A stretch of 64,000 nt of DNA from Thermoproteus sp. (GCA_038893495.1 JAWARJ010000001.1:1353824-1417823); one strand, 5' to 3'; positions 32,357 through 47,942 are shown, counted from the first letter of the stretch. Notes: generated by a model from the letters alone, not told the origin. Translations and numbers: made by a program.

Positions 32357-33991
32357 ATGAAATGGATAGGCTTGATGCCGTTATTGGTAGCGCCGGTTCT
32401 CTACGCCAACGCGGTCCTATACCCAATTACTGGCATAAAAATAGAAATTATTAATACTACCATATTTGGATATATAACTGATTATAGGATCAATATTTAT
32501 GTAAATAATACTGACCTATCTAAAATATTAAAAACAGATGTTTACACTATGGCGATTCTATCATACGGATTTAATTGCACAATTCCCGGCAATATAACCA
32601 GGACCTATACTGTCGACATACCGACAGGCTCCATCTCTATATCTCTCATAGATCTGGCCTCTTCTTATTGTTATGGAGAGCCCACAAGGATAACAAAACT
32701 TTCCCTCTCGGTATTAGTCCTTGGCAGATTTGACAATCTGCCCAAGTGGTATAAGGCGATAGATCTACTGGGAGAATTGAAATCTGTGGGCTATTCCGAC
32801 ATAATAACGCCTGAATCTAGACTAGTTAAATTCACTGTAGAGAAGGTAATAGTAGATAAAGACAGATGGGTCTCCTACCTACTAAAGAGCTACTACGGCC
32901 AGTATTTTGGCGAGATCGACGTAGTTGCTTGGAGTAATTTCAGTTCCGCCTTCGCGATAAGGGTGTCCTACACCCCATTTTACTACTGGCTGACTAAATA
33001 TCTCGACGTTAAGCTCTACGTAAACGGGACTACGTTCGACTTAAACAATGGAGATGCGATACTGCCCCTCTACGCCCCCATATATGGCAATATCTCTATG
33101 TATTTAGTACTCACGGCCTTGAAGTTCTCCACGAAGATATATGTCAACAACGACACGGGGCCGATAAGGCTGGTGCCCATGGAGGTAGTAAGAAGAGGCC
33201 TAGAGGGCAATATCACCTCCTTCGAGAAGATAGGCAAAAACGCATATAGGGTCATCATTTCCCTTAACGACACGATAGACCCAGCCTCTACGACCTTCAA
33301 GTTAGTGCCTTCTACAGGGTCCGTCCAGGTCATGTACTTCGCACGGGTAGTCGGACCTAGGACGGTCGAGCTCTATTTATTCCCCTACAGGCCGGGGGCC
33401 CTATTCGGCGAACTTTACATCTCAATGGATAGAATTGTAATTAGGAAGGAGGGCGCCGTGCGGTTGGAGCTTTCATTTGACGAAGGCTATGAGCCGGAGG
33501 CAGTCTATACGCCTCTGTCAGTCCAGCGCTATGCCCCCTCGGCGACCGATGTGTCGAAAATTCTAGAAATCCATGTGGTTAATGTAAATAGCACCGAATT
33601 CCTCTATGTGTACCTAAACATGACGGCAACTCCTAGAGATCCCCACAAGCCTGTCCTCATAGTCCCTATAGTCCTGTACGAGACCTACTACGGCCCTATG
33701 ATATACGACGTAATCAACGCGACGGGAGTTACGCCTATCGCCGTGGCTCAAAATAAATCGACAGGCATAACGCTTTTAGTTCCGCTATACCTAATGGAGA
33801 GCCCCCAGGAGGTCGACTTGTTGATATATGCAGAGAACATAAGGAGCTACAAGATCCTAGACCTAGAGGCATATGCATATGCCTTTCCCGACTACGACGG
33901 CTCTGTTATTCCATATCTGTCGGCCGTATCGTTGGCACTAATCGCTTTGGCGTTCAGTTTGGCGAGAAAACGCCCTGGGGAGGGACCATGA
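32357..33991 (+). CDS. Secreted membrane-anchored protein of the cytochrome cluster, unknown
   Basis: 544 residues. An N-terminal signal (LMPLLVAPVLYANAVLY) is followed by a long beta-rich ectodomain with many N-x-S/T sites. The C-terminus has one membrane helix (VIPYLSAVSLALIALAFSL) and a basic tail RKRPGEG. The first 400 nt are richer in A and T than neighbouring genes. It overlaps the octaheme cytochrome gene by ATGA, so it is the first gene of that operon. I do not recognise a family; there are no heme motifs. Confidence 0.75.
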   Translation: MKWIGLMPLLVAPVLYANAVLYPITGIKIEIINTTIFGYITDYRINIYVNNTDLSKILKTDVYTMAILSYGFNCTIPGNITRTYTVDIPTGSISISLIDLASSYCYGEPTRITKLSLSVLVLGRFDNLPKWYKAIDLLGELKSVGYSDIITPESRLVKFTVEKVIVDKDRWVSYLLKSYYGQYFGEIDVVAWSNFSSAFAIRVSYTPFYYWLTKYLDVKLYVNGTTFDLNNGDAILPLYAPIYGNISMYLVLTALKFSTKIYVNNDTGPIRLVPMEVVRRGLEGNITSFEKIGKNAYRVIISLNDTIDPASTTFKLVPSTGSVQVMYFARVVGPRTVELYLFPYRPGALFGELYISMDRIVIRKEGAVRLELSFDEGYEPEAVYTPLSVQRYAPSATDVSKILEIHVVNVNSTEFLYVYLNMTATPRDPHKPVLIVPIVLYETYYGPMIYDVINATGVTPIAVAQNKSTGITLLVPLYLMESPQEVDLLIYAENIRSYKILDLEAYAYAFPDYDGSVIPYLSAVSLALIALAFSLARKRPGEGP

Positions 33992-34719
33992 AGTGGGGCG
34001 AAGCCGTCAGGGGCTTTAAAGAGGCCTTGAGGAACCCGTTGGTGTTGGCGTTATTGATAATAGTCGTAATAGTGGTGGCCGCGACGGCGGGGTTCTTGTG
34101 GCTAAAATACGACCCTGGAGCCAACGGCTTTTGTACTGCATGCCACAGCATGGTTCCGTTCTATTCGGCCATAGAGTCGACGCCCCACGGAGCTTTTAAC
34201 TGCCATGTCTGTCACGAACTTACAGTATCGGAATTACCGCAACTGGCGGGGGAGTTGTGGGTCTATATAACCGAAAACCCATCTCCCAGCGATATAGCCA
34301 AACGCGCCCATATAACCATGTTGGACCAATGTCTAGCCTGCCATCCACAAGCTCTGGGCGATCTACAGATACACTCTGTACATAGCGGTCTGGTCCAAAC
34401 ACTCGGGACTTGTACTATTTGCCACAACCCGCATAATTTAGCCCAGACGCCCGCCAAATGCCAAACCTGCCATAGATTAGACGAAGTCCTAAATACCCAC
34501 CTAGAATTCCATACCTATGCCTGGCAACAAGTCCAAATGGGCAATATACAAGTGTGCGCCCAATGCCACGGCCCTACAGTTACGTGGGGCGTGCCGTGGG
34601 GACCCGACTGCACAAACGGCATTGCGCGCGGCATGTCTTGTGTGGCGTGTCACGGCCCCACGGCGGCTCCGTGGAGCCCATCCGACTTCGTAGACTGTAC
34701 TAGATGTCACGCCAAGTAG
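33988..34719 (+). CDS. Octaheme membrane cytochrome c, NapC/NrfH-like
   Basis: 243 residues. One N-terminal membrane helix (about 18-40, LVLALLIIVVIVVAATAGFL) is followed by eight CXXCH sites: CTACH, CHVCH, CLACH, CTICH, CQTCH, CAQCH, CVACH and CTRCH. The beginning GFCTACHSMVPF...HGAFNCHVCH matches the NapC/NrfH quinol-dehydrogenase pattern, but those have four or five hemes. It probably takes electrons from membrane quinol to extracytoplasmic partners. It overlaps the neighbours on both sides (4 and 16 nt). No terminal reductase is recognised nearby. Confidence 0.9.
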   Translation: MKWGEAVRGFKEALRNPLVLALLIIVVIVVAATAGFLWLKYDPGANGFCTACHSMVPFYSAIESTPHGAFNCHVCHELTVSELPQLAGELWVYITENPSPSDIAKRAHITMLDQCLACHPQALGDLQIHSVHSGLVQTLGTCTICHNPHNLAQTPAKCQTCHRLDEVLNTHLEFHTYAWQQVQMGNIQVCAQCHGPTVTWGVPWGPDCTNGIARGMSCVACHGPTAAPWSPSDFVDCTRCHAK

Positions 34720-36506
34720 CGTTGAGTTTTTTGCTCCTAGCCGCTTTAGTGCGGGCCGCCACCTACGGAGTGGGGATATATCAAGGCGTGGGGGTGCCCG
34801 TCTCGGTGTCGATAGAGCTCACGCCGGGAAACGGCACTATATACGTCCCCGGCTACACCGCCAGCTCCGACTTCTTGTATTCGGCTAAAGTGGCCATATG
34901 GGAGGCCGCCCTCAACGCGGGAGTCCAGCCATGGCGGTACAACTACATCATAGAGATAAAGCCGCTCGGCAATATGTCGACCTACATCGGAGGCCCCAGT
35001 CTTTCGCTTACCATATACCTCGAAGCTCTAAATGTATTTACAGGGAGGCAAGGCAACTCGTCGATAGCGTACAGCGGCGCCGTGGGGCCAGGCGGAGTCG
35101 TAGACCTAGTTGGCAATATAAGAGAGAAAGCCCTGGGCCTCCAAAATAGCGGCTTTAAGGCGTTCGCCTTCCCGGTCTTAGAGCTGTTCACATATAGGTT
35201 CGAACTGCGCCCTGTCTACTACGGCGTCTACGCCACGGTGATAAGGCAATTGACGGCAATCCCGACGAATCTGACCGGCGTCCATATAGGGCTGATCGAA
35301 GTGGGAAATGTATATCAAGCGGCCGCCGTCGCGCAAGGCCTTCCGTACAACATAACGGCCGATCTATACGCCCTAGACCTCAAAATCAACGCGAGCCATA
35401 TCAACTACAGCGGCTTTGCGGCCCCCGCGCTGTCCCTATTAAAAAACGAGACGGCGACGCTCATAAACGGCACGCTAGACGCCATGAAGGCCCTAAACAT
35501 ACAAGGCGGCACATATCTCGATCTAGTCCGACAAGCTCTGGCATATTTAGAGGCGGGCGAGAGGACGCCGGACCTCAGGCCAGAACTTTGGGTTCAAGCC
35601 TACGGCACAGCGGCGACGGCCTATTATTATCTATTATTACTCTACAACAACACGAGAGCCGTGAGGGAGATGGAGGTCCGCTACTACGCCCTTCTGTCTG
35701 TTGCCGTCGAGGCGCAAAAATTCGTGAAGCCGGACTTGCAGAACCTCTGCGAGGCCGCATATTCGCGTATGTATTTACACCTAGCTAACCAGTCCCTAGA
35801 CCAGCTGAAGGCCTATCTCGACTACTACCTCTGGACGGGCTCTCCGACCTATGCGGCCGCTGCCGTATATACCTACGCCACCATTACGGAATACCTCTGG
35901 AGGAGTATAATCTACGCCTCTTTCGCCGCCAACGGCAGCGGCGTGGATCTAAACGCCACCTACAATAGATTTACGGACTACCTCAACGCGGTGGTTAGAT
36001 ACGCCGAGCTCTACAGCGAAGAGACCAACATCTATTCGACACAACTAGTCGGCGGCGCCGAGACTAATTACTATCGGATGTTAGAAACAGACGACCGGCT
36101 AGCCGCGCTCGGATATGGAACCGAGGCGCTGGCCTACGCCATGGCCTATTTCGCGATACATCCAGGCTATCCCAACACCACTGCCGTCAAATATGCGTTT
36201 TTCGCCGATTCGGCATACCACAAACTCGGCCGGTTGACCTATACACAGATAGTAGACCTCAAAACTGCAAGTCTTGCAGAACTCAACGAGACGAGGGTGC
36301 TATACCTCTCTAGGGCCTTGGCGTGCGAATACTTGAGGGAATTCGCCGAGCCCGGCCCCGCCGTAGAGGCCGCCTCGGCCTCCACAACTACGTTGCCTAC
36401 GCCCAACAGCGAAAATACGGGAGGACTTTGGGCCTTGGCGGTGGGAATCGCCGCCTGTATGGGGGCCTGTCTAGGCGTCTTGGAGCGCAGAAGGAGGCCA
36501 GACTGA
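34704..36506 (+). CDS. Secreted, membrane-anchored Lon-like (S16) protease-domain protein
   Basis: 600 residues. A signal peptide (QVALSFLLLAALVRAA) precedes a Lon-type proteolytic domain. The nucleophile region is YIGGPSLSLTIYLEAL (Ser of GPS), and GPGGVVDLVGNIREKALGLQ supplies the catalytic Lys, ending FKAFAFP, as in archaeal predicted secreted serine proteases. About 350 helical residues follow and a C-terminal helix (GLWALAVGIAACMGACLGVL) anchors it. It has no ATPase domain. It may act on misfolded or unmatured exported cytochromes (inference from operon position). Confidence 0.75.
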   Translation: MSRQVALSFLLLAALVRAATYGVGIYQGVGVPVSVSIELTPGNGTIYVPGYTASSDFLYSAKVAIWEAALNAGVQPWRYNYIIEIKPLGNMSTYIGGPSLSLTIYLEALNVFTGRQGNSSIAYSGAVGPGGVVDLVGNIREKALGLQNSGFKAFAFPVLELFTYRFELRPVYYGVYATVIRQLTAIPTNLTGVHIGLIEVGNVYQAAAVAQGLPYNITADLYALDLKINASHINYSGFAAPALSLLKNETATLINGTLDAMKALNIQGGTYLDLVRQALAYLEAGERTPDLRPELWVQAYGTAATAYYYLLLLYNNTRAVREMEVRYYALLSVAVEAQKFVKPDLQNLCEAAYSRMYLHLANQSLDQLKAYLDYYLWTGSPTYAAAAVYTYATITEYLWRSIIYASFAANGSGVDLNATYNRFTDYLNAVVRYAELYSEETNIYSTQLVGGAETNYYRMLETDDRLAALGYGTEALAYAMAYFAIHPGYPNTTAVKYAFFADSAYHKLGRLTYTQIVDLKTASLAELNETRVLYLSRALACEYLREFAEPGPAVEAASASTTTLPTPNSENTGGLWALAVGIAACMGACLGVLERRRRPD

Positions 36507-36512
36507 ATATTT

Positions 36513-36524
36513 TATGTACAGATA
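36513..36524 (+). promoter_or_regulatory. TATGTACARRTA element, copy 2
   Basis: TATGTACAGATA lies 40-51 nt before the ATG of the ccmF-like gene, at exactly the same distance from the start as copy 1, and 7 nt after the stop of the preceding gene. Confidence 0.5.
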
Positions 36525-36563
36525 TTATAACAAGGAATATTAGTTGAGTCAACGTTATGGGCC

Positions 36564-39245
36564 ATGGATCTACACCCAACAAGCTATCTCTTCTTAATAT
36601 CAATTGCACTATATCTCATATACTTTATCGCATCGTTTTTACGGATATCTAAAAGAGCGCGCGACATCCTCTTTGCCGGAGCTCTCGTTTTGCTTGTAGC
36701 AAGCTGGGCCTACTACCTCTACTCATTCGTAATACAAGACTTCTCGCTCGAGCCAGTCGCGTTGGACACTAACGTGGGGATGCCGCCACTATTGAGGATA
36801 GGGGCCTCTTGGAGCGGATCTGGGTCCAGCTTGTTCCTATTCCTCTTGTTTTTTGAGCTTTCGGCGTATTTCCTGTCTAAACACGCTGGGGAGTGGTTTG
36901 GAAGGTCGGCCTCTCTAGTGGCGTTGGGCGTAGGCGCCTCCATAGTGCTCTACGGCGCCTTCAACAAGTTCTCGGGGGGCACTGTGGGGGCCGGGCTGAA
37001 TCCTTTACTTCAGAGCTTTTGGGTGTTAATACATCCGCCTCTGGTTATGGCGGGCTTCGCGCTCATAGCCGCCTCCGCCATGGCGTTGTTGTCCAGGAGG
37101 TCTCCCGCCGCCGAGAGGGCGCTCCATTTAGGGGCTGCGGTCTTATTTTCCGGGATGGTAATAGGCGGATATTGGAGCTACGTCACCTTCGGGTGGGGCG
37201 GATATTGGGCGTGGGACCCCGTCGAGACGGCCCAATTGATGGCGCTAATCGTCGCCGTGGCTACATTCCACGTGCCGCAGAGCCTAGAGCCCTTTAGGCG
37301 TCCCTCGTTGTATTTAGCGGTAAGCGCGGTCTTCCTGGCGCTATTTGTGACGCGTACAGGGATGAGTCCGCTACACGGCTTCGCGTCTCCAGGCGCGGGC
37401 GCCTATGTCCTCCTACTGGCGTCTTTAATACCTCTAGGCGGCGCGCTCAGAGGCCTATTGACGGCGCAATTCTCCAGGTTGCCGCAAGCGCCAGAGGTCC
37501 TCTCACGCGCGTTAATGTCTCTGGCCATTTTTGCTGCCGCCGTGTTGCTCTACGGCTCTTTGTTTGTGCCGGCCATAGGCGCGGCGCTTGGGCTCAACGT
37601 ATCTCCGCCCCAACAAGACGACGGCATGTGGTTCTACAACACCGCGTTGGTGCCTCTAGTCCTCTTCACGCTGGTCTTAGCCCCGTTGGCTTTCCTCAAT
37701 AAGGGCAGGAGGGCGTTTAGGGCGTACCTAATTGTGGGGACAGCCGCGACTGTCGCCGTCGTGATGGCGGCGGCATACGGCCTATTCGACTACTCGCCCA
37801 AATCGCACCTATTGACAAACATAGCAGTGGCTACTGCCCTAGTGTGGTCCGCATTGGGAGGCGCCGTCCTTGTGCTCTTCGCCGCGAGGCCCGGCAAGCG
37901 GCTGGTGGGGCTGTTGCACCTAGCCCTATTGGTGTTCTTCGTAGCTGTAGTCCTCAGCATGCCCTACGCCTACAACCGCTCGTATTTCGTAGACTACTCC
38001 ATGGAGCCCGGCGCGTCGGCGAATATCTACGGCGTGCAGACAGCCCTAAAGGGCCTGAAGTTCGGAATGCTCCAAGGCTCAGTGGACTTGGGTCCATATG
38101 CTGGAGGCGCCACCTACACCTATGCGAGCTACGCGGTGGCTTATGGAGGCATGTTCGCCCAACAGGTAGCGCCGATGCTCACAGACGCCAAGGCCAGAGC
38201 CTTCTCGAACCCGGCGCTGGGGCTCCTATTGAATTTATCGCAAGAGGCGCCTATAGCTCTAGGCAACGTCGACATAGTCGTAAACTCCACATCGTCGCTA
38301 AGGCTCATAAACGCGTCGTTGTGGATATATACACAACACTCCGGGACGGGCCTACTCTCAATTTTGGCCTACCTCGTAGCGAATAGCGCCGAGACGAAAG
38401 GCCTTGTTGTCGGCAACGCCACAGTGGTTAGACTGTCAAAGCCGCTTTTATTACCCGTCGGCGGAGGCCTCTTGAATATATCAGGCCCTGTGGAGATAGG
38501 CAACGAGAGTTTTTGGTATCTACTGCCCATGGTGGCCTACCTCTCGGCGGGAAATCAGACCATCGGCCTGCCCTACGGGTTAGACCTCAACTTGACCCTA
38601 TACTACATGTCCCTCTCGCCGCAATACCCCATATACTATGCGATCAATTCCCCCTATTGGAATATACTAACCGACCAGCAAAAACTCGCCGCCGTGGCGC
38701 CCGCCGTAGGCGTCGTTGAGGCGCCGACGCAAGTGCCCCGCGGCAGCTATATGGAAGTAGATATGGGGATAGACGGGTCGGTCAGGAAAGCCGTGATAAG
38801 ATATGAAGTAAACGGCGAGGTCTCTGGAGTACACGGGCTTGTGGTGTCCGTATTGACGGTCCCGAAGGGCCTCGGCGACGTGTATATGGCGGTCTTCGCC
38901 CCCTCCGAATCCACACAATTCGCCCAGTACCCAGCGCCAATGTTGTATTACGTCAAGAACATAACAGCCTCTATGCCTCCAGACAAATCGCTGGCGGTAT
39001 TGGCCTTAATAGCGTCGGGGTTCTACCTAGATCAACTCCGCAATATGGACATAAACACAGCCGCATCATACCTCTTCAACGCCATGATGGACCTATATGG
39101 AGCCGCCTCCAGCTTCGACCCAGCCGCATTAAATGCGGTAGACATATCGGTCAAAATAGTCCCCTTCGTGAACCTCCTATGGGCCTCGGCCGCTGCCGTA
39201 ACGGCGCTGTTGATAGCCTACGCCGCAATGGAGCGCAAAGAATAA
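36564..39245 (+). CDS. ccmF: CcmF-like cytochrome c heme lyase with extra ectodomain
   Basis: 893 residues. The first 480 or so hold the multi-helix CcmF/CcsA core with the tryptophan-rich heme-handling motif TFGWGGYWAWDPVETAQLM and preceding histidine-bearing loops (LIHPPLVMAGF, LFVTRTGMSPLHGF). Residues about 485-865 form an additional extracytoplasmic domain with many N-x-S/T sites, before a final helix (LLWASAAAVTALLIAYA). CcmF joins heme to apocytochrome CXXCH sites. Bacterial CcmF is about 640 residues, so the extra domain is notable. Confidence 0.85.
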   Translation: MDLHPTSYLFLISIALYLIYFIASFLRISKRARDILFAGALVLLVASWAYYLYSFVIQDFSLEPVALDTNVGMPPLLRIGASWSGSGSSLFLFLLFFELSAYFLSKHAGEWFGRSASLVALGVGASIVLYGAFNKFSGGTVGAGLNPLLQSFWVLIHPPLVMAGFALIAASAMALLSRRSPAAERALHLGAAVLFSGMVIGGYWSYVTFGWGGYWAWDPVETAQLMALIVAVATFHVPQSLEPFRRPSLYLAVSAVFLALFVTRTGMSPLHGFASPGAGAYVLLLASLIPLGGALRGLLTAQFSRLPQAPEVLSRALMSLAIFAAAVLLYGSLFVPAIGAALGLNVSPPQQDDGMWFYNTALVPLVLFTLVLAPLAFLNKGRRAFRAYLIVGTAATVAVVMAAAYGLFDYSPKSHLLTNIAVATALVWSALGGAVLVLFAARPGKRLVGLLHLALLVFFVAVVLSMPYAYNRSYFVDYSMEPGASANIYGVQTALKGLKFGMLQGSVDLGPYAGGATYTYASYAVAYGGMFAQQVAPMLTDAKARAFSNPALGLLLNLSQEAPIALGNVDIVVNSTSSLRLINASLWIYTQHSGTGLLSILAYLVANSAETKGLVVGNATVVRLSKPLLLPVGGGLLNISGPVEIGNESFWYLLPMVAYLSAGNQTIGLPYGLDLNLTLYYMSLSPQYPIYYAINSPYWNILTDQQKLAAVAPAVGVVEAPTQVPRGSYMEVDMGIDGSVRKAVIRYEVNGEVSGVHGLVVSVLTVPKGLGDVYMAVFAPSESTQFAQYPAPMLYYVKNITASMPPDKSLAVLALIASGFYLDQLRNMDINTAASYLFNAMMDLYGAASSFDPAALNAVDISVKIVPFVNLLWASAAAVTALLIAYAAMERKE

Positions 39246-39247
39246 TA

Positions 39248-39259
39248 TATGTACAAATA
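39248..39259 (+). promoter_or_regulatory. TATGTACARRTA element, copy 3
   Basis: TATGTACAAATA starts 2 nt after the stop of the ccmF-like gene. A TATA box (ATAATATATAATAGG, about 39291-39305) follows 32 nt further on, upstream of the next cytochrome. Confidence 0.5.
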
Positions 39260-39339
39260 GTATATTAATAGAACATCTTACATAAAGACTGATAATATAT
39301 AATAGGAAGGCTTAAATGGATTTCTTGTATAGCTCTCAC

Positions 39340-40398
39340 ATGAATAAAAGCCCAATTCTAGCAGTCCTAGCCATATTGGCACTAGCCGCCGGCGCGGCGG
39401 CCTACGGCCTATACAACCACCCACCCCACTGCGACGCATGCCACAGCCAGCCTTACGCCAACTACTCCGGCTCTCTAGTCGGCCTACTCAGCGGCCCGGC
39501 CGCCGGTAGTTGCAACACGGCGTCCGCCGAATGCGTCTGGAGCCACCAGATACTAACTGACGGACAGGCGTGGTTGCAGTGCCAGAACTGCCACAGCGCT
39601 ATATACAGTAGCATTATGTCCTCTGTCCACTCGTCTCTACAAGGCACCTACGGCTGTGCATGTCACGCAGTGATGCATGTCGGCTACGGCACACCCACTG
39701 CTGGCTATGCGGCTTGTATTTATTACTACAAGCCCAGCACCAACGCCCCCGCGGCAGTAGCTGCTGGCAGCTTCACCCCCACAAGCCTATGTTTCTATGG
39801 GACTCCCGGCGGCACATACTACTTCTTCAACGGCACGCCTATGACTACGCCGCCGCAAGCTCTAGCAGTAACTCCCGGATATATAGCCAATGCAACTGCT
39901 GGAACTGTTAAGATATTGCCTGGTAGGGGTAGCGAATACAGTGGCGACGTCTTCCAGGTATTGACCTGGACTCTTGCCGCCTACAATGCGCCGCCAGCAC
40001 CTTACGAACATGCCTTAACTGAAGAGCAACCCAATGGAGAGACCATAATAGTGGGCGTTTATGACATACACACCGGCACCTTCATACTGGTAAGGCCTTG
40101 GGGTCCCTACAACTCATTTAGGTATACATCTCCCTATGAGGAGCCCGGCTGGGCCGCGTGTTTCAACTGCCACTTCATCTACCAAGGCCAGCCCACCGCC
40201 TTTAGCGTAGCCAAGATCGATGGAGTCTGGAAGATAGGCATACCTGAAGATGTATTTAAGTCGTTGACCGACCCCCACAATATACAGGTGCCTGCAGCTG
40301 CCGTTGAGGCCAAGCCCGTCTTCAACATGGCCGCCGCCGGCGCGGCCGCCGTAGTGGTGCTACTAGCCGGAGCCATATTGGCGCTAAAACGTAGGTAA
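39340..40398 (+). CDS. Multiheme cytochrome c with CXCH site
   Basis: 352 residues from the ATG at 39340; an upstream ATG at 39316 would lie before the expected transcription start. A signal helix (ILAVLAILALAAGAAAYGLY) leads into three CXXCH sites (CDACH, CQNCH, CFNCH) and one CXCH site in YGCACHAVMHVGYG. A C-terminal helix anchors it outside (FNMAAAGAAAVVVLLAGAIL). The segment from CQNCH to HVGYG is closely matched in the next gene product, so the two share a duplicated heme module. An electron-carrier role is likely. Confidence 0.85.
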   Translation: MNKSPILAVLAILALAAGAAAYGLYNHPPHCDACHSQPYANYSGSLVGLLSGPAAGSCNTASAECVWSHQILTDGQAWLQCQNCHSAIYSSIMSSVHSSLQGTYGCACHAVMHVGYGTPTAGYAACIYYYKPSTNAPAAVAAGSFTPTSLCFYGTPGGTYYFFNGTPMTTPPQALAVTPGYIANATAGTVKILPGRGSEYSGDVFQVLTWTLAAYNAPPAPYEHALTEEQPNGETIIVGVYDIHTGTFILVRPWGPYNSFRYTSPYEEPGWAACFNCHFIYQGQPTAFSVAKIDGVWKIGIPEDVFKSLTDPHNIQVPAAAVEAKPVFNMAAAGAAAVVVLLAGAILALKRR

Positions 40399-40415
40399 TA
40401 AACCCCTCCTTTTTC

Positions 40416-43163
40416 ATGTATTTACCTCCTCTCCTGATTACCTCTTTTTCTCTTGCCGCATCTATAGCGGTAAGACGTAGAGGGCTCTCTCTATTTCTTT
40501 ATGGAATTGGGGCGGGCGGCATCCTCGCCTTCTTTTTGGGCGGTCAGGCCGGGCCCTTCTGGCCTTTCGGCGTGGCTTCCGGCTTCTTGTACCTCGCATC
40601 TTCGGCGGCGCTTTACTACGGCAGGTTCATCTCAGCGTGGCTTCTAGGAGCCGCCGCATATGCCATAAACGGAATAGCCCACGCCGCCTTCGGCCAGTGG
40701 TACGACCTCTTTGGCGATATCTTCGGCGTAGCCTACTTGGCGTCTTTATGCGCTTGGGCGCTGGGCGGCGGCCGCCTCGCGCTCCTCGCGGCATCTCTGT
40801 CTGCCCTCTCGTCTATTATGTACGACTGGTCGGGCTCCGTCGCGGGGCTGGGCGGCGGGCCTTCAGCTCTGGCGTTCCTCATGGCGGCGCCTTTCGCGTT
40901 GGCCTATACGGCCGGCGGAGCGGCTAGGAACTTCACACATGTTGGGGCGGTCGTATCTACAGGAGTGTTCGTCATCCTCCTATATATATACATTTATATA
41001 TTCTCTAGGTCCGCCGCGCCGCCCCTAGGGGCGATAGGCCTCGGCGTCTTGGTCCTGTCAGCCATATGCGCATTGGCCTCTACGAGGCCCCGTGTGGCGG
41101 CCGCGGCGTTATTGATAGCGCTAGGCGTCTATCTGGCTTCGGGGCTAGTCATGCCGAATCCGATACTGAGGTCTATAGCCGTTGCCGCCGTGTTCCTGTC
41201 GTTTGCAACAGGGAGGACGCGCCTACTTGTAGGGGTATTGGCGTCTCTGTTTGTCCTAGCCGCCGCCTCTATGTGGGGGCCTCAGCTGGTTCCCTTCAAC
41301 GCTACATATTTCTTGCCTTTAAGCTTCGGCGCCAACGGCGTCCTGTTGGCTCAATCCCAACAGGGCCCCATCGCCGTGAAGAGCGCCGCTATTTCTTTCA
41401 GCGACTCGGCGGCTTCTATTAAGACTGTCTTGGCCTTCAATATAGATAGGGAGAGGATAGAGAGGACATACCTACTGCCCGTATCGATAGACGGCACCTC
41501 CATAAGGGATGTGTTCTTCGCCCCTCCTCATCTCGTATATGTGACTATAAGCGCAGGCGAGGACCTAGCCCAGTCGGTATACGCCGCCATATATCTAAAT
41601 AGGATCTTCGGGGTGTACAACGGAGCTGTTGGGACTATAAACGTCGAGTTGGTGGTATATCCCTATATGTTGGTCTTAGCAACATTAGTCTTCCTGTCTA
41701 TTTCTGTGTGGATTGCGGCCTACATGTTTAAAAAGCCGATCCGCTTGTTCTTTGTCCTATTTCTGCTTTTCTTGTTTGCCCACACGGCTCTGGGATACCC
41801 GATAAAAAGCGCCAACTGCAACGATTGCCACGGAGGGAGCGGCTGTCTTAGTTGCCATACGTCGACATATTTAACAAGCACGGCCCACGGCGTGTTGTCC
41901 AACGCGGTCCTATATAGATCTCCACCACCGTCTTCGCCTAACTACTGTGCCTGTCATTTTGGGGTATCTAGCACGACAGGAGGTGGGGGCATGGTGGGAG
42001 GGCCCGGCATGTCTCCGTCTTGCGCATGTCATGTGGTGATACATATAAACCTTACCAACCATGGATTTCAATTCCCGTCGGAGGTAGTAGTGGAGAACTA
42101 CTTGCCGACAGCTCAAAGCCCCTACGTCTCGCCTAGCCTTTACATTAAACAAGCTAAGTTGTGGTACAATTGCACCCGCGCGCCGGCTAACTGTCCGCCG
42201 AATTTACATCAATTAGTCACGTCGCTCTATTCGGCCGGATATACGCAAAATGTAGTGGTAGTGGCATTGTGGGATTGGTATAGAGGCGACGTGATACTGC
42301 CTCTGCCCGGAGGCGTGGGGCCCTCGGCTGTAGCTGGGGTATACGGAGAAGCGGCGGATTCCAGCTGGACTTCGTGTTTCAATTGTCATTTCGTTTATGT
42401 GAGCCCTTGGGCTGTGGGCGCTACAATAAATGCGACAAAACAGACTAATCCCGGTGCGTCTTTTATACAACACCCCGATTTGTGCCAACCGTGTCACGGT
42501 GTCCCTAAGAACGCAACGGACGTATCGCGCACCATATGGGCCCATAACATATATGGCTATAGCGCAAATGGGGCAGATGCTATTTGGAGCAATTGTGGGG
42601 TTTGCCATTCGGCTATAGCCTCGGTGGTGTCCTCTAGTGTACACTCGTCGATAGGTTGTGAGTGCCACGCGGTGGTCCATATGGGCTATTCCTATAATGG
42701 CATGTGGCTGGCGGGGCTTTATACCTTCGAGGGCTCTGGCGTCGGTGTGGCGCCGAGCTCCCTCGTGAGGGCTGTTCGGGTCTATACGCCATATAACGTC
42801 ACAGCGGGGGTCTCTCAGCTGGTCTCCTTTATTCTAGCTAAAACTCCAGGCGAAAACATAGAAGTGGGCCTTTGGGACGCCTATTTGAACGATTATGTGT
42901 CGACTTTACCGCTTGGGCCGGGCCCCGAGGCTGTCTGGGCTACGTGTTTTAGTTGCCACTTCATGTCTATAGACCCCAGTAAGTTCTCGGACCCCCACGG
43001 GATACAAGCCACGTCGATTGGTGTGGTCGAATTGCCGGCGGCGCCTCCGACCTCGACGACTCTAAGTATGAGCGGCTGGCGTGGCGGGACTGTGGGGGCG
43101 GCCGTCGTGTTTCTAATAGTCGCTTTGGGGGTATACATCCTATTCAGGAGGGATTCCAATTAG
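40416..43163 (+). CDS. Large membrane protein fused to a multiheme domain with CXCH sites
   Basis: 915 residues. The N-terminal part has about eight to ten membrane helices (1-275), then an ectodomain and another hydrophobic pair (about 425-465). The heme domain follows with six CXXCH (CNDCH, CLSCH, CFNCH, CQPCH, CGVCH, CFSCH) and three CXCH (YCACHF, SCACHVVIH, GCECHAVVHMGY). A final helix anchors the C-terminus. Two copies of the module CxxCHSAI...SSVHSS..GCxCHAVxH occur across this and the preceding protein. It may be a membrane-embedded electron conduit. I know no named family with this architecture. Confidence 0.85.
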   Translation: MYLPPLLITSFSLAASIAVRRRGLSLFLYGIGAGGILAFFLGGQAGPFWPFGVASGFLYLASSAALYYGRFISAWLLGAAAYAINGIAHAAFGQWYDLFGDIFGVAYLASLCAWALGGGRLALLAASLSALSSIMYDWSGSVAGLGGGPSALAFLMAAPFALAYTAGGAARNFTHVGAVVSTGVFVILLYIYIYIFSRSAAPPLGAIGLGVLVLSAICALASTRPRVAAAALLIALGVYLASGLVMPNPILRSIAVAAVFLSFATGRTRLLVGVLASLFVLAAASMWGPQLVPFNATYFLPLSFGANGVLLAQSQQGPIAVKSAAISFSDSAASIKTVLAFNIDRERIERTYLLPVSIDGTSIRDVFFAPPHLVYVTISAGEDLAQSVYAAIYLNRIFGVYNGAVGTINVELVVYPYMLVLATLVFLSISVWIAAYMFKKPIRLFFVLFLLFLFAHTALGYPIKSANCNDCHGGSGCLSCHTSTYLTSTAHGVLSNAVLYRSPPPSSPNYCACHFGVSSTTGGGGMVGGPGMSPSCACHVVIHINLTNHGFQFPSEVVVENYLPTAQSPYVSPSLYIKQAKLWYNCTRAPANCPPNLHQLVTSLYSAGYTQNVVVVALWDWYRGDVILPLPGGVGPSAVAGVYGEAADSSWTSCFNCHFVYVSPWAVGATINATKQTNPGASFIQHPDLCQPCHGVPKNATDVSRTIWAHNIYGYSANGADAIWSNCGVCHSAIASVVSSSVHSSIGCECHAVVHMGYSYNGMWLAGLYTFEGSGVGVAPSSLVRAVRVYTPYNVTAGVSQLVSFILAKTPGENIEVGLWDAYLNDYVSTLPLGPGPEAVWATCFSCHFMSIDPSKFSDPHGIQATSIGVVELPAAPPTSTTLSMSGWRGGTVGAAVVFLIVALGVYILFRRDSN

Positions 43164-43171
43164 TATTATAA

Positions 43172-44137
43172 GTGTTCACTATGGATAACAAGGCTTATAT
43201 GACGTATAGATATATAGCGTTTGTGTTCACACTCAAAGATTTTATATTACCGGCTTTAGCCGTAATAGATATAGGTACCGCTATTTGGCTTGTACAATTC
43301 GGCCCCTTTCCGTTAGTGGTAGATACGGGCGCCTCTACCGCCTATTTAAATGTATATGTCCACGTGCCGGGCTCGGTAGCTCTCTACGTCGCCGCGACTC
43401 TCGCCCTAATAGCGGCTCTATTGAGAAGAATTAGGATTATGGACTTCTCTGCATACGCCACAGCGGCTCTCGGCTGGTTTGCCTTCATAACGGGCACCAT
43501 TTGGGCCGCCGAGAGTTGGGGCTCCGCCTTGGCTCTAGACCCCAGACAGATGTCGGTGTTGGTCTTCGCGTTGATTTACAGCATATATCCTGCCGTCAAG
43601 AGGGGCGTAGAGGACCCCGAGAGGAGGGAGAGGCTGGCCAGGATCTATATAGCGGCCGGCTACGCCCTCGCCGTTTTGTCCCTCATAGCGCCGTATCTAG
43701 CCACTTCATTCCACCCAAGGCCTGGCACAACCATGGAGGGACCTCTAGGCGCGTATATGGGCCTACGCATCTTAATAGCGTTGGCGGTCTTCGCGGCGCT
43801 GGCGGCAGTCAGACCTCCCAGATTCGTCGCCTATATCTACCTGGCGGGCATCGCCGCCTCGTTAGTGCTCTTATACCCATGGTTCTTCTATTCTCCTGTC
43901 AGGGTCGTCAACGTCACCACGTCTTCGATAGGTCTTGCCGACGGCCGCGTGTTGGACATAAAGCCCTCTGCGGTGTTGTCCCCGGCTTTTGTCAACAACA
44001 CCCCAACTCTAGTGGGGAACTTCGTGGCGTTAATTGGCGGCGTCCCCCAACTCGTCAGGCACTACTCGGCTTATGTCAACTTAGCGCTTTATTGTGCCAC
44101 TATGTCTCTACTAGTTGAGGTTAGGAGGAGGCTATGA
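43172..44137 (+). CDS. ccmC: CcmC-like heme delivery protein
   Basis: 321 residues with about eight helices. The first heme His lies in YVHVPGSVALYVAATLAL. The WWD-like segment is diverged (TIWAAESWGSALALDPRQM). A second His is in ATSFHPRPGTTMEG, where bacterial CcmC has the NTLHQG loop. CcmC loads heme onto CcmE outside the membrane. ATG 43181 is an alternative to the GTG at 43172. It overlaps ccmE by ATGA. Confidence 0.8.
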   Translation: MFTMDNKAYMTYRYIAFVFTLKDFILPALAVIDIGTAIWLVQFGPFPLVVDTGASTAYLNVYVHVPGSVALYVAATLALIAALLRRIRIMDFSAYATAALGWFAFITGTIWAAESWGSALALDPRQMSVLVFALIYSIYPAVKRGVEDPERRERLARIYIAAGYALAVLSLIAPYLATSFHPRPGTTMEGPLGAYMGLRILIALAVFAALAAVRPPRFVAYIYLAGIAASLVLLYPWFFYSPVRVVNVTTSSIGLADGRVLDIKPSAVLSPAFVNNTPTLVGNFVALIGGVPQLVRHYSAYVNLALYCATMSLLVEVRRRL

Positions 44138-44511
44138 GGGGCGTAGTTGTGGCGGCTGTCTTGGCGGCGGTCTTCGCTGCGGTGGGCCTACTGTCCGTAT
44201 ATATGGGGTCGCCTATGGACGTATCAGATTTGGCTAAACTAAAGGGCCCGCCTGTCTCCGTCAAGGTCTCTGGGGCTTTTGGCGGGTATTGGATGTCGAA
44301 CGGCTACGTCTATATAAAACTCGTAGGGAGAGACGGCTTTTCGATAATAGCAGTCGCGCCGTATTCTGAAATAGTCAAGAGGGCCGGCACGTCTTTCCAG
44401 TTCAGCAACACCGTGGTGGTGGAGGGCATATACAACCCGGCCACCAGGACGCTTAACGTGACGACTATACTGCAGGGGTGCCACTCGGCCTACTACAGCC
44501 CAGTGTCATGA
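44134..44511 (+). CDS. ccmE: CcmE-like heme chaperone, cysteine type
   Basis: 125 residues. An N-terminal membrane helix (VVVAAVLAAVFAAVGLLSVY) carries an OB-like domain (PPVSVKVSGAFGGYW, TVVVEGIYNPATRTLNV). The C-terminal heme-binding motif is LQGCHSAYY: CxxxY replaces the bacterial HxxxY, a variant described for archaeal and some deltaproteobacterial CcmE. Heme would be held covalently by the Cys before transfer through CcmF. ATGA overlaps link it to ccmC and ccmA. Confidence 0.85.
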   Translation: MRGVVVAAVLAAVFAAVGLLSVYMGSPMDVSDLAKLKGPPVSVKVSGAFGGYWMSNGYVYIKLVGRDGFSIIAVAPYSEIVKRAGTSFQFSNTVVVEGIYNPATRTLNVTTILQGCHSAYYSPVS

Positions 44512-45080
44512 TATTGGTGGAGGGGCTATGGAAGAGGTTCGGCGACTTCTGGGTCCTCCGCGGCGTCAATCTGAAGGTGAACAGTATAGTCACGTTGATA
44601 GGCCCCAACGGGTCTGGGAAGACCACGCTCGTGAGGATAATAGCGGGGCTTTTGGAGCCCAGCAGGGGGAGGGTTCTGGTGGACGGAATGAGGCCGAAAG
44701 TGCCGGCGGGGGTGTTGGGCGTGGTGTTCCACAGCCCCATGCTCTACCCCGAGCTGACTGTGGGGGAGAACTTAAGGCTCTTCTCGAAGCTGGCGGGCGG
44801 GAAGCTGGAGGGGTGCCCCTTGGGGGTCTGCAAGGTTTTGGACAGGCCCGTGAGGGCTTTGAGTTTCGGCTGGAGGAGGAGAGTAGACATAGTGAGGGCC
44901 CTACTGCCGGACCCACCCAATTTGGTCATAGACGAGCCCACGACGGGCCTAGACCAAGAGGCGAGGGGCGAGCTCGCAGACATCTTGAAGTCCAGAGAGG
45001 CCGTACTTCTAACCTCGCCGTTCCCGTTGGGGATAGGAAGGGAGCTACGCCTAGAAGAAGTGCAATGTTTGAATTGTTGA
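44508..45080 (+). CDS. ccmA: CcmA-like ABC transporter ATPase
   Basis: 190 residues from the ATG at 44508, which overlaps the ccmE stop. Walker A is GPNGSGKTTL, the signature LSFGWRRRVDIVRALL replaces LSGGQ, and Walker B is NLVIDEPTTGLD. Energising release of holo-CcmE from CcmC is the known role of CcmAB. The protein ends with a Cys pair (EEVQCLNC), unusual for this family. It overlaps ccmB by 16 nt. Confidence 0.85.
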   Translation: MILVEGLWKRFGDFWVLRGVNLKVNSIVTLIGPNGSGKTTLVRIIAGLLEPSRGRVLVDGMRPKVPAGVLGVVFHSPMLYPELTVGENLRLFSKLAGGKLEGCPLGVCKVLDRPVRALSFGWRRRVDIVRALLPDPPNLVIDEPTTGLDQEARGELADILKSREAVLLTSPFPLGIGRELRLEEVQCLNC

Positions 45081-45613
45081 GAGCAGATATGTTGTCGGCA
45101 TTTAGGAGGACAGATGAGTTGACGTATCTCATAGTTGCGGCTGTTGCTATGGGCCTTATAGGCTCTCTCGCGGGGGCTTTCGCCGTATATTTAGTGGCCC
45201 TGGCGGAATCCCAATTGGCCGCCTATATTTTCATCTTGAGGGATTGGGACCGCGGCCTCCTTGAGGGCCTCGTGTATTATGTGGGACATATGGGAGTTTA
45301 TATATCTCGACTGGTCCTTACCGCTTTGTTCTCGGCAATGGCCTCAGCACTTGCGGCTGTATTGGTCAGTCCGAGCTATGTGCTTCTAGCGGTACTCGCC
45401 GCGATCCTTACATCTTCTTCAAGTGCCCTTGCGGCCATGTTGACCGCTTACGGCGGCCTTTCGGCCCCTGCGGGAGCCGCCATGTCTGCAGTGTTGTCGC
45501 TACCGCCGTTATTACATATGGCCGAGACGGGCGCAGGCGCGCCCGCCGCCTACGTGATATGTTTTGTGGTCGCAATTGGCCTTCTGGCCTCTGAGATGTT
45601 GGATAGGCCATGA
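45065..45613 (+). CDS. ccmB: CcmB-like ABC permease
   Basis: 182 residues from the ATG at 45065 inside the ccmA end. There are six hydrophobic segments and the N-terminus FELLRADMLSAFRRTDEL has the cytoplasmic coupling-helix look of CcmB. It is smaller than bacterial CcmB (about 220). The pairing with CcmA and position between ccmA and the thioredoxin-CcdA gene are the main evidence. An ATGA overlap joins the next gene. Confidence 0.75.
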   Translation: MFELLRADMLSAFRRTDELTYLIVAAVAMGLIGSLAGAFAVYLVALAESQLAAYIFILRDWDRGLLEGLVYYVGHMGVYISRLVLTALFSAMASALAAVLVSPSYVLLAVLAAILTSSSSALAAMLTAYGGLSAPAGAAMSAVLSLPPLLHMAETGAGAPAAYVICFVVAIGLLASEMLDRP

Positions 45614-46770
45614 GGGCGGCTATATTCCTCGTCGTGTTGCTGTCCGCTGGCTTGGCTTTGGCCTATTCTTACATCAAGATGGGTTTAATTAACTTTACAG
45701 AGGTTTCATCTCCATATGAAGTGTCGGGAACATTCCTTCTATACATATATAGTCCTATATGTGATGAATGTAAAATGTTTGAAGAACAAGTCTTGTCGAG
45801 CCCCTCTGTGGCATCTCTCCTCTCCGGACTGAACCTATATGCGCTTAACGCCTACGCGCACCCCCTGCCGGGCCTACAGGTAAAAGTCGAGGGACAGGTG
45901 GTATATGTCGACATAGACGCGCAGACCGTTAAATATGTCGTGGCTAACGGGACTAGGTACTTCCCGATAGAGGGCACGCCTGCCGTATTAATTGGACGCG
46001 TCAAGAATGGAACTATTACGTTATTGGGCTTCTGGATAGGCGGCGTCCCTCCATCCAATCAGAGGATGGACGTCCAGTTCTCTCAATTCGTCAAGGAGGC
46101 GTTGGGCATAAGTCCTTCGGCAAAGGCCCAGGCGGCCGTACTGCCGTCGTTATTCGCCGCGTTGGCGACGTCGGCTGTCATGGGATTTCTGAGCGCCTTC
46201 TCGCCTTGCGTGTTGCCTGTGTTGTCGCTGGCCGGCGTGACCTATTTGGCTAGGAGGAGCCTCTGGAAGATGTTGGCGGGCTTAGTGACGTCGTTTTTGT
46301 TGTTTAGCGCTATCCTCGCCTCTTTGGGATCTGCGCTCGTGCCTTTGAGGCAGATAGTGGCTACTATCGGCGGCTCCATCTTGGCGGCTCTCGGCCTTAC
46401 TCAACTCGTGGGGCGTCTAAACGTCGAGTTCTCGAGGCTCGCCTCTTACATCCAGACGGCGGCCTTTAAGAGAACTCGCGGCGCTGGGGACTTTCTGTTG
46501 GGCGCGTCGCTCGGCGCCGTCTGGCTTCCTTGCGTATCGCCTTATGCGGGCGTGGCGATAGCCGCGACGTTGTACTCGCTGGCGGGAAGCCCCGTGGACG
46601 CCTTTATCTCTATTGCGCTATATGGGGCTTGTCTCGCCGCGGCGGTGTATTTAATTGTAAGGGGCCTAGTCAAAATAGGGAAGAAGATTGGCTCGATGCG
46701 GCACCTAGAGCAAATAGTAGGCGTTATAGCCATAGCATTGGGGGCGTATATAATATGGACGTCTCTATGA
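45610..46770 (+). CDS. Thioredoxin-like domain fused to CcdA/DsbD membrane reductase
   Basis: 386 residues. A signal helix, then an extracytoplasmic thioredoxin-fold domain (about 35-170) with YSPICDECKMFEEQ (CxxC) and the cis-Pro region EGTPAVLIGRV. The six-helix CcdA part has the paired cysteines AFSPCVLPVLSLAG and VWLPCVSPYAG. It would carry reducing equivalents across the membrane and keep apocytochrome cysteines reduced, taking over the roles of CcdA plus CcmG/CcmH, which are not found separately. It overlaps hemA by ATGA. Confidence 0.85.
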   Translation: MRAAIFLVVLLSAGLALAYSYIKMGLINFTEVSSPYEVSGTFLLYIYSPICDECKMFEEQVLSSPSVASLLSGLNLYALNAYAHPLPGLQVKVEGQVVYVDIDAQTVKYVVANGTRYFPIEGTPAVLIGRVKNGTITLLGFWIGGVPPSNQRMDVQFSQFVKEALGISPSAKAQAAVLPSLFAALATSAVMGFLSAFSPCVLPVLSLAGVTYLARRSLWKMLAGLVTSFLLFSAILASLGSALVPLRQIVATIGGSILAALGLTQLVGRLNVEFSRLASYIQTAAFKRTRGAGDFLLGASLGAVWLPCVSPYAGVAIAATLYSLAGSPVDAFISIALYGACLAAAVYLIVRGLVKIGKKIGSMRHLEQIVGVIAIALGAYIIWTSL

Positions 46771-47942
46771 ACCTAGTCGACAAGCTAGTGGGGCTCTCCT
46801 TGACCTATAGGAAGCTGGACTCGAAGAAGCTCGGCGAGATAGCCAATAGGGTGCGGAATGTATGCGCCAGCCCCAAATACCCAATTTTCGTCCTACATAC
46901 CTGCAATAGGGTCGAAGTCTACCTCTACGACGCGCCTCACGAATATGTGGAGGAGATAAAGTCCTACTATGCGCCCTATGTTGATAAAGTTGAGGTATAT
47001 CGCGGCGTTGCGGCCGCCCAACACCTCTTTGCGGTTGCCGCCGGGCTCGACTCCATGTTGATAGGCGAGACCGACGTGTTGGGACAATTGGAAGAGGCCT
47101 ACGACTCGCAGGTGAGGAAGGGCACCCTCAAGGGCCTGTTGAAAGTCGTCGTTGAACATGCAATACACGTGGGTAAGAAGGTGAGGACCTCTACAGGCAT
47201 ATCTAGAGGGCCGAGGAGTTTAAGCTCTCTTTCCGTTGAATATCTCAAGCGGCTTTATGGAGACCTTTCTGCGATGGCCTTTTGTATAGTCGGCGCGGGT
47301 TCCGTCGGGAGGGGCGTGGCTAAGGAGCTTCTAGAATCTGGCGCCGCCAAAGTGGTCGTGTTGAATAGAACGGTGGAGAAGGCCCTCGACCTACCTCAGA
47401 TAGGGATAGAGGTGCGGCCCCTCACCCAAGAGACATTACGTTGGTGTCTCCTCGATTTCGATGTGGTCTACACCGCAATTAGTTCTTTCGAGCCCGTGAT
47501 AACCTCGGTGCCGGACGGCGCCAAGGTCAAAGTGATAGTGGACTTGGGAGTCCCGCGTAACGTTGCCTCCGACCTCTCCGTGACGGTGCTCACTCTCGAC
47601 GACATGAGGGGGCTCGCTGAGGAATACAATAAGTTGAGGAGAGCCGAAGTGGAGAGGGCTTGGGAGATTGTGAAGAACGACGTGGCTCTACTTGAAACGC
47701 GGCTCCGAAAGAAGTGGGTAGATGAGACAATTTCAGAGATCATGGCGACGGCTCTTTCAGCTGCTGAAGAGGAGGGGCGGAGGGCCGGATGCGAAGGAGC
47801 AATTCTGGCTGCCAGGTCGACGGCGAAGCGGGTATTACTGCCCGTAGTGGAGCAATTGAAATACATGGCCGAAAATGGAAACTTGGAGCTAGTCAGATCT
47901 ATAATAGAGTTCTTAGGTAATAGTTATGAGCGTCGCAAGTAA
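46767..47942 (+). CDS. hemA: Glutamyl-tRNA reductase
   Basis: 391 residues from the ATG at 46767 that overlaps the previous stop; ATG 46755 is an alternative. The active-site Cys is in LHTCNRVEVYLYD, substrate contacts are in GLDSMLIGETDVLGQLEEAY, and the NADPH site is FCIVGAGSVGRGVAKELL. It catalyses the first step of C5 tetrapyrrole synthesis, reducing glutamyl-tRNA to glutamate semialdehyde. Coupling to cytochrome c maturation genes links heme supply to heme export. The remaining hem genes are not in this window. Confidence 0.95.
   Translation: MNLVDKLVGLSLTYRKLDSKKLGEIANRVRNVCASPKYPIFVLHTCNRVEVYLYDAPHEYVEEIKSYYAPYVDKVEVYRGVAAAQHLFAVAAGLDSMLIGETDVLGQLEEAYDSQVRKGTLKGLLKVVVEHAIHVGKKVRTSTGISRGPRSLSSLSVEYLKRLYGDLSAMAFCIVGAGSVGRGVAKELLESGAAKVVVLNRTVEKALDLPQIGIEVRPLTQETLRWCLLDFDVVYTAISSFEPVITSVPDGAKVKVIVDLGVPRNVASDLSVTVLTLDDMRGLAEEYNKLRRAEVERAWEIVKNDVALLETRLRKKWVDETISEIMATALSAAEEEGRRAGCEGAILAARSTAKRVLLPVVEQLKYMAENGNLELVRSIIEFLGNSYERRK

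What the first reader, a model, noticed from the sequence alone, without database searches (positions are those of the whole stretch)
39340..43163. Recurrent CXCH sites next to CXXCH sites in two multiheme proteins
Four motifs have only one residue between the cysteines: GCACHAVMH (gene at 39340), and YCACHF, SCACHVVIH and GCECHAVVH (gene at 40416). Three share CxCHxVxH, and two sit in a repeated module CxxCHSAI..SSVHSS..GCxCHAVxH(M/V)GY. The pattern is in frame and duplicated, so it is not a sequencing slip. Heme c normally attaches at CXXCH; a CXCH site would be a new or rarely noted variant, or a non-heme metal site.
Basis: partly seen in the sequence, partly recalled or inferred. Interest (0 to 1): 0.78.

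Follow-up and report, generated by a model that had tools for sequence, protein, structure and literature searches.

The report
One-residue heme-binding motif in archaeal nanowires
Two heme-rich proteins of a heat-loving archaeon carry heme-attachment sites in which the two anchoring cysteines are one residue closer than the textbook rule; relatives, including the building block of a known protein 'nanowire', show that these short sites very probably hold hemes and have switched to and from the normal form several times in evolution.

Summary
The 39340 gene has 3 CXXCH + 1 CXCH and the 40416 gene has 6 + 3. CXCHxVxH occurs exactly three times in the 2-Mb genome, all here. The first protein is a homologue (~48% identity) of the tetraheme filament subunit of Pyrobaculum calidifontis (PDB 8E5F). 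That protein also has 3 CXXCH + 1 CACH, only four Cys-His pairs in all, yet is published as carrying four bis-His c-type hemes; so CXCH is a heme site. The second protein fuses a membrane part to two more copies of this module. In 36 homologous modules the third heme site is CXCH in 23 and CXXCH in 13, differing by one residue, with about five switches on the tree. One Ccm set (CcmF, C, E, A; no CcmH) lies in the same cluster and is the only one detected in the genome, so one lyase probably serves both spacings. A non-heme metal site is unlikely. Covalent attachment in this organism, the number of thioether bonds and filament formation were not tested. This is a rarely noted variant, already present (though I found no text naming it) in a solved structure.

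The parts
39316..40398 (+). Tetraheme nanowire-type cytochrome (likely start 39340): signal peptide, four heme sites, C-terminal TM + KRR tail
   Evidence: phmmer to 8e5f_A E=3.3e-85 over nearly full length; homologues
39430..39444 (+). heme-1 site CDACH
39580..39594 (+). heme-2 site CQNCH
39655..39678 (+). heme-3 site CACHAVMH (CXCH + second His, probable distal ligand of another heme)
   Evidence: the same site is CXXCH in G575, G559, G581, G747
40159..40173 (+). heme-4 site CFNCH
40416..43163 (+). 915-aa fusion: polytopic membrane part (about res 1-455) + signal-like hydrophobic segment + double tetraheme-type module
   Evidence: in three Pyrobaculum-type genomes the two halves are separate genes
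41817..42389 (+). Module A: CNDCH, CLSCH, extra CACHF (41946-41957), heme-3 CACHVVIH (42021-42044), CFNCH
42483..42959 (+). Module B: CQPCH, CGVCH, heme-3 CECHAVVH (42657-42680), CFSCH
   Evidence: profile-profile match to the single-module family E=1.8e-39
36564..39245 (+). CcmF-type heme lyase with WWD motif (WGGYWAWD)
   Evidence: PF01578 E=3.9e-14, motif, tree
43172..44137 (+). CcmC-like heme handling protein
   Evidence: PF01578 E=2.8e-8, TIGR01191 E=5.9e-12
44134..44511 (+). probable CcmE of the archaeal type, CHSAY = CXXXY
   Evidence: position and motif conserved in four genomes; no significant Pfam match
44478..45080 (+). CcmA-like ABC ATPase
   Evidence: PF00005 E=2.5e-22
45062..45613 (+). 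membrane ORF in the CcmB position
   Evidence: position only; no Pfam match
45610..46770 (+). thioredoxin-like/CcdA-like thiol-reduction protein
   Evidence: weak PF13098 match and syntenic in Pyrobaculum-type genomes
33988..34719 (+). NrfH-like octaheme cytochrome, 8 CXXCH and no CXCH, probable electron donor
   Evidence: TIGR03153 E=3.4e-7, PF14522 E=4.4e-12; near the nanowire-type gene in the relatives whose flanks were read
34704..36506 (+). conserved 600-aa protein of no known family
   Evidence: syntenic in Pyrobaculum-type genomes, G231 and the Geothermarchaeota MAG

Best explanation
The CXCH motifs are genuine c-type heme attachment sites with a one-residue spacer. They sit at the third heme position of a tetraheme module whose archetype is the P. 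calidifontis extracellular cytochrome nanowire subunit. The gene at 39340 encodes the nanowire-type subunit of this organism; the gene at 40416 encodes a membrane-anchored cytochrome with two such modules, probably the link between the membrane (quinone pool, NrfH-like donor at 33988-34719) and the filament or cell surface. The apoproteins are exported and heme is attached outside by the adjacent CcmA-C-E-F set, which lacks CcmH and must accept both C-x-C-H and C-x-x-C-H. The second His of CxCHxVxH and other invariant His serve as distal ligands, giving bis-His hemes for long-range electron transfer. Shown here: homology, site conservation, CXCH/CXXCH interchange, gene cluster. Inferred: covalent attachment in this organism, filament formation, electron route, the lyase's tolerance.
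For: (1) The G028 homologue is identical over 385/385 residues to PDB 8e5f_A; it has 3 CXXCH + 1 CACH and just four Cys-His dipeptides, yet published work calls this filament a tetraheme protein with one cofactor type, bis-His c-type heme (PMC11936953): the fourth heme can only sit at CXCH. (2) Profile-found homologues show the same aligned site as CXCH in some and CXXCH in others, e.g. GCKCHAVVHVGY against GCKGCHSVVHIGY: 23 of 36 modules CXCH, 13 CXXCH, five changes on a tree built with the linker masked, at least three forced by starred branches. (3) All single-module homologues outside G747 have exactly four CH sites whatever the spacing, as do two of the four G747 copies. (4) Proximal His 43, 93, 117, 286 and other His 35, 77, 105, 121, 321 are invariant over 15 proteins. 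(5) In module A the extra YCxCH and a downstream His are both kept in three orthologues and both lost in G029, as expected of a heme and its ligand. (6) Ccm genes are interleaved with the cytochrome genes and the order is nearly conserved in Pyrobaculum-type genomes.
Against: Neither the coordinates of 8E5F nor the original paper could be opened, so the heme at CXCH was inferred from counts, not seen. No protein chemistry exists for this organism. Altered cysteine spacing is handled badly by the E. coli Ccm system (extra sulfur atom in the product, PMC3601427), so attachment might be by one thioether only. The site YCACH at 41946 is absent in one of three orthologues and has no structural counterpart. 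The AlphaFold model of the double module was worthless (pLDDT 35).
Confidence: 0.92

Rival explanations
1. CXCH is a non-heme metal site (iron-sulfur or zinc) or a disulfide set among the hemes.
Against: The homologous site is an ordinary CXXCH in G575, G559, G581, G437 and G747; the total of four CH sites per subunit and the tetraheme structure of the P. calidifontis homologue need it for heme.
Confidence: 0.02
2. The CXCH heme is held by a single thioether bond (or an altered one), the other cysteine being free.
For: Spacing changes gave aberrant attachment with the E. coli system (PMC3601427).
Against: Both cysteines of CXCH are kept in all 23 CXCH modules; a free Cys would be expected to drift. 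The modules were partly recognised by that motif, so this is not fully independent.
Confidence: 0.1
3. A dedicated second heme lyase, like NrfE for CXXCK or CcsA1 for CX15CH, attaches heme to CXCH.
For: The cluster CcmF of four CXCH-bearing Thermoproteaceae-type genomes forms its own clade, apart from the other CcmF proteins of that family; in three of these genomes both types coexist.
Against: The window's own closed genome has only two PF01578 genes, the CcmF and the CcmC of this cluster, so one CcmF must also serve all CXXCH sites there; the Geothermarchaeota MAG likewise has one CcmF; CXCH genomes are spread over several CcmF clades.
Confidence: 0.2
4. The gene at 39340 is a nanowire homologue that does not polymerise but acts as a membrane-tethered electron carrier.
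For: Relatives in G401, G545 and G513 are shorter; nearly all keep a C-terminal hydrophobic helix with a basic tail.
Against: About 48% identity to a filament-forming subunit over the full length.
Confidence: 0.3

Closest known systems
Pyrobaculum calidifontis extracellular cytochrome nanowire subunit (UniProt A3MW92, PDB 8E5F)
   Same: Full-length homology, order CXXCH-CXXCH-CXCHxxxH-CFNCH, same ligand histidines, same gene neighbourhood
   Different: ~48% identity; in the window the neighbouring membrane protein is fused to the double-module cytochrome; filament formation not shown
Archaeoglobus veneficus nanowire subunit (F2KMU8, PDB 8E5G) and Geobacter OmcE/OmcS
   Same: Work alike: multi-heme bis-His wires (literature)
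   Different: None was recovered by sequence with the module profiles; whether they have CXCH was not tested
Variant heme c motifs with dedicated lyases: CXXCK (NrfA, NrfEFG) and CX15CH (CcsA1)
   Same: Non-standard heme-attachment motif with maturation genes
   Different: Spacer shorter, not longer; His kept; no separate lyase detected in the window's genome
Archaeal Ccm set without CcmH (System I*)
   Same: CcmE-like protein with CXXXY, CcmF with WWD, no CcmH found
   Different: Long CcmF (893 aa); acts, by inference, on CXCH as well as CXXCH

Membership tests
P. calidifontis-type tetraheme nanowire subunit | sequence homology over the whole chain | tested here: met
   E=3.3e-85, residues 11-360 against 3-383
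P. calidifontis-type tetraheme nanowire subunit | four heme sites in fixed order, third one CXCH | tested here: met
P. calidifontis-type tetraheme nanowire subunit | histidines available for bis-His ligation of four hemes | tested here: met
   4 proximal and 5 other His invariant in 15 proteins; ligation itself not observed
P. calidifontis-type tetraheme nanowire subunit | polymerises into an extracellular filament | not testable with these tools
   needs microscopy
c-type heme attachment site | covalent thioether heme at the site | not testable with these tools
   needs mass spectrometry or density; inferred from heme count of 8E5F
c-type heme attachment site | homologous position is CXXCH in relatives | tested here: met
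canonical CXXCH heme c motif | two residues between the cysteines | tested here: not met
   one residue; hence 'variant'
Archaeal System I* maturation | CcmE with CXXXY instead of HXXXY | tested here: met
   CHSAY conserved in four genomes; the CcmE assignment itself is by motif and position
Archaeal System I* maturation | no CcmH | tested here: met
   PF03918 absent from six CXCH genomes, positive controls ring
Dedicated lyase for a variant motif (NrfE/CcsA1-like) | separate lyase besides the general one | tested here: not met
   only one CcmF in the closed genome
CcmF family (N-terminal part of the 915-aa protein) | WWD motif and CcmF fold | tested here: inconclusive
   no WWD-type motif apparent in the sequence; low-confidence model (pLDDT 57.8) hits CcmF 6zmq by Foldseek E=1.6e-4 but TM 0.32, Z 7.5 over 257 residues; profile comparison negative

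The most novel reading that the evidence does not exclude
A single CcmH-free archaeal heme lyase naturally attaches heme to CX1CH as well as CX2CH sites (and perhaps CX4CH or longer in distant relatives), so that spacing at one heme position drifts in evolution; this would break the rule, drawn from bacteria, that each non-standard motif needs its own lyase. The membrane protein fused to the double-module cytochrome might be a degenerate CcmF that presents these sites.
Probability: 0.45. Interest if true: 0.68.

Novelty: new variant of a known kind. Interest (0 to 1): 0.52.

Why it matters
Heme c proteins are counted by searching for CXXCH. A conserved CXCH site means that archaeal cytochromes, nanowires among them, are undercounted (three instead of four hemes per subunit) and that electron paths drawn from sequence would have false gaps. 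The natural CXCH/CXXCH interchange at one position also offers a clean test of what the archaeal heme lyase recognises, an open question because these archaea lack CcmH.

Tried and rejected
The original nanowire paper (Cell 2023) is not in the library. Full-text searches for CXCH found a single relevant mention, as a regular expression in a heme-counting script (PMC11218250); the archaeal cytochrome survey PMC4429474 counted CxxCH only. The first named-genome scan with one protein found nothing. AlphaFold of the double module failed (pLDDT 35) and was not searched. The idea that the membrane half of the 915-aa protein is CcmF-like stays a lead only. The idea that CXCH tracks one special CcmF clade was tested and not upheld. 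The loci L026 and L027 from the second named-genome scan were fetched by a pattern that contains CXCH, so they were not taken as independent evidence of conservation. Weak profile hits in G427, G514 and G667 are other multiheme proteins or chance and were left out.

Full report
OBSERVATION. The ORFs 39316-40398 (start probably 39340) and 40416-43163 carry the four CXCH motifs exactly as described, with 3 and 6 CXXCH. The pattern CxCHx[VIM]xH occurs three times in the closed 1,995,394-bp genome, all here, and its reversed control not at all. Shuffles make chance very unlikely for the second protein; for the first a lone CXCH could arise by chance in 1.4% of shuffles, but the fuller motif CXCHxxxH in 0.06%.

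IDENTITY. The first protein matches PDB 8e5f_A from end to end (E=3.3e-85). Genome G028 encodes a protein identical to that chain over all 385 residues; reviews name it the P. calidifontis cytochrome nanowire A3MW92 (PMC12954529; PMC11936953). The window's genome belongs to another genus of the same family. The second protein is a fusion. Its C-terminal half contains two copies of the module: module B with CQPCH-CGVCH-CECHAVVH-CFSCH, and module A with CNDCH-CLSCH-CACHF-CACHVVIH-CFNCH. Single- and double-module profiles align at E=1.8e-39. Its N-terminal half is a polytopic membrane protein which in three Pyrobaculum-type genomes is a separate gene between the nanowire gene and ccmF. The double-module cytochrome is also a separate gene there, with its own signal peptide; a signal-like stretch is still visible at the junction in the window.

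IS CXCH A HEME SITE? Three lines agree. First, count: A3MW92 has only four Cys-His dipeptides, three CXXCH and one CACH, and it is published as a tetraheme chain in a class of filaments that hold a single type of cofactor, bis-His c-type heme (PMC11936953). The fourth heme can only be at CACH. I could not open the coordinates or the original paper, so this is a deduction. Second, replacement: profile searches found convincing homologues in six genomes of the order of G231 (214 searched) and five of the class of the Geothermarchaeota MAG (400 searched). At the third heme position some have CXCH (GCKCHAVVHVGY) and others CXXCH (GCKGCHSVVHIGY); 36 modules give 23 and 13. On a tree with the linker masked, CXCH and CXXCH changed places five times, at least three times by well-supported branches. 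Even within one genome (G559, G575) one protein has CXXCH there and the other CXCH. In G032 another site, heme 2 of module A, has become PCSCH where its orthologues have CXXCH. Third, ligands: the four proximal His and five other His are invariant in 15 single-module proteins, and the extra YCxCH of module A is lost together with a nearby His in G029.

MATURATION. The cluster is 544-aa unknown, NrfH-like octaheme, 600-aa unknown, CcmF, nanowire subunit, fusion protein, CcmC, CcmE-like, CcmA, membrane ORF, CcdA-like, HemA. CcmF has the WWD motif; the small protein has CHSAY, the CXXXY signature of archaeal CcmE (archaeal CcmE with Cys and absence of CcmH: PMC3601427 and PMC9084895). CcmH is absent from six CXCH genomes. 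The genome has just one CcmF and one CcmC by PF01578. As the octaheme neighbour has eight CXXCH, the same lyase should serve both spacings. In bacteria odd motifs (CXXCK, CX15CH) have their own lyases (PMC10663686) and altered spacing gives faulty products with the E. coli system (PMC3601427), so this tolerance would be notable. A separate clade of CcmF goes with the cluster in this family, so some adaptation is possible, but CXCH genomes elsewhere use other CcmF clades.

MECHANISM (inferred). Electrons pass from the membrane via the NrfH-like octaheme to the anchored double-module cytochrome and on to the nanowire-type subunit, for use of outside acceptors such as metal oxides. The short linker changes how one heme is hung but keeps the chain unbroken.

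KNOWN OR NEW. The protein is a new member of a known family; the motif is a variant of the heme c site that is present, unremarked in the texts I could read, in a solved structure. The authors of that structure may well have described it; I could not check. Hence 'new variant of a known kind' with moderate interest.

Noticed in passing
40416-41786: Membrane half of the 915-aa protein: about 11 TM helices + beta domain + TM; Foldseek's only significant PDB match is the heme lyase CcmF (6zmq), on a low-confidence model; could be a degenerate CcmF fused to its substrate.
   Followed up: partly
L024:7278-8789 (G231), module B: Heme-2 site reads CSGASGVDSTLSCH, a possible CX11CH site.
   Followed up: no
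L092, L097, L100, L101 (G747) and L080 (G437): Sites with longer spacers near heme 2: CGSDSCH, CGAASCH, CAVQHCH, CYGSRCH (CX4CH) and CVGENSHCH (CX6CH); spacing in this family seems generally elastic.
   Followed up: no
   Followed up: partly
32357-33991 and 34704-36506: Two conserved proteins of no known family that travel with the nanowire genes; the 600-aa one reaches the Geothermarchaeota MAG.
   Followed up: no
window cluster 32357-47942: The cytochrome genes are patchy: only 4 of 45 genomes of the order have them, and the five other members of the window's genus lack them, suggesting transfer or repeated loss.
   Followed up: partly
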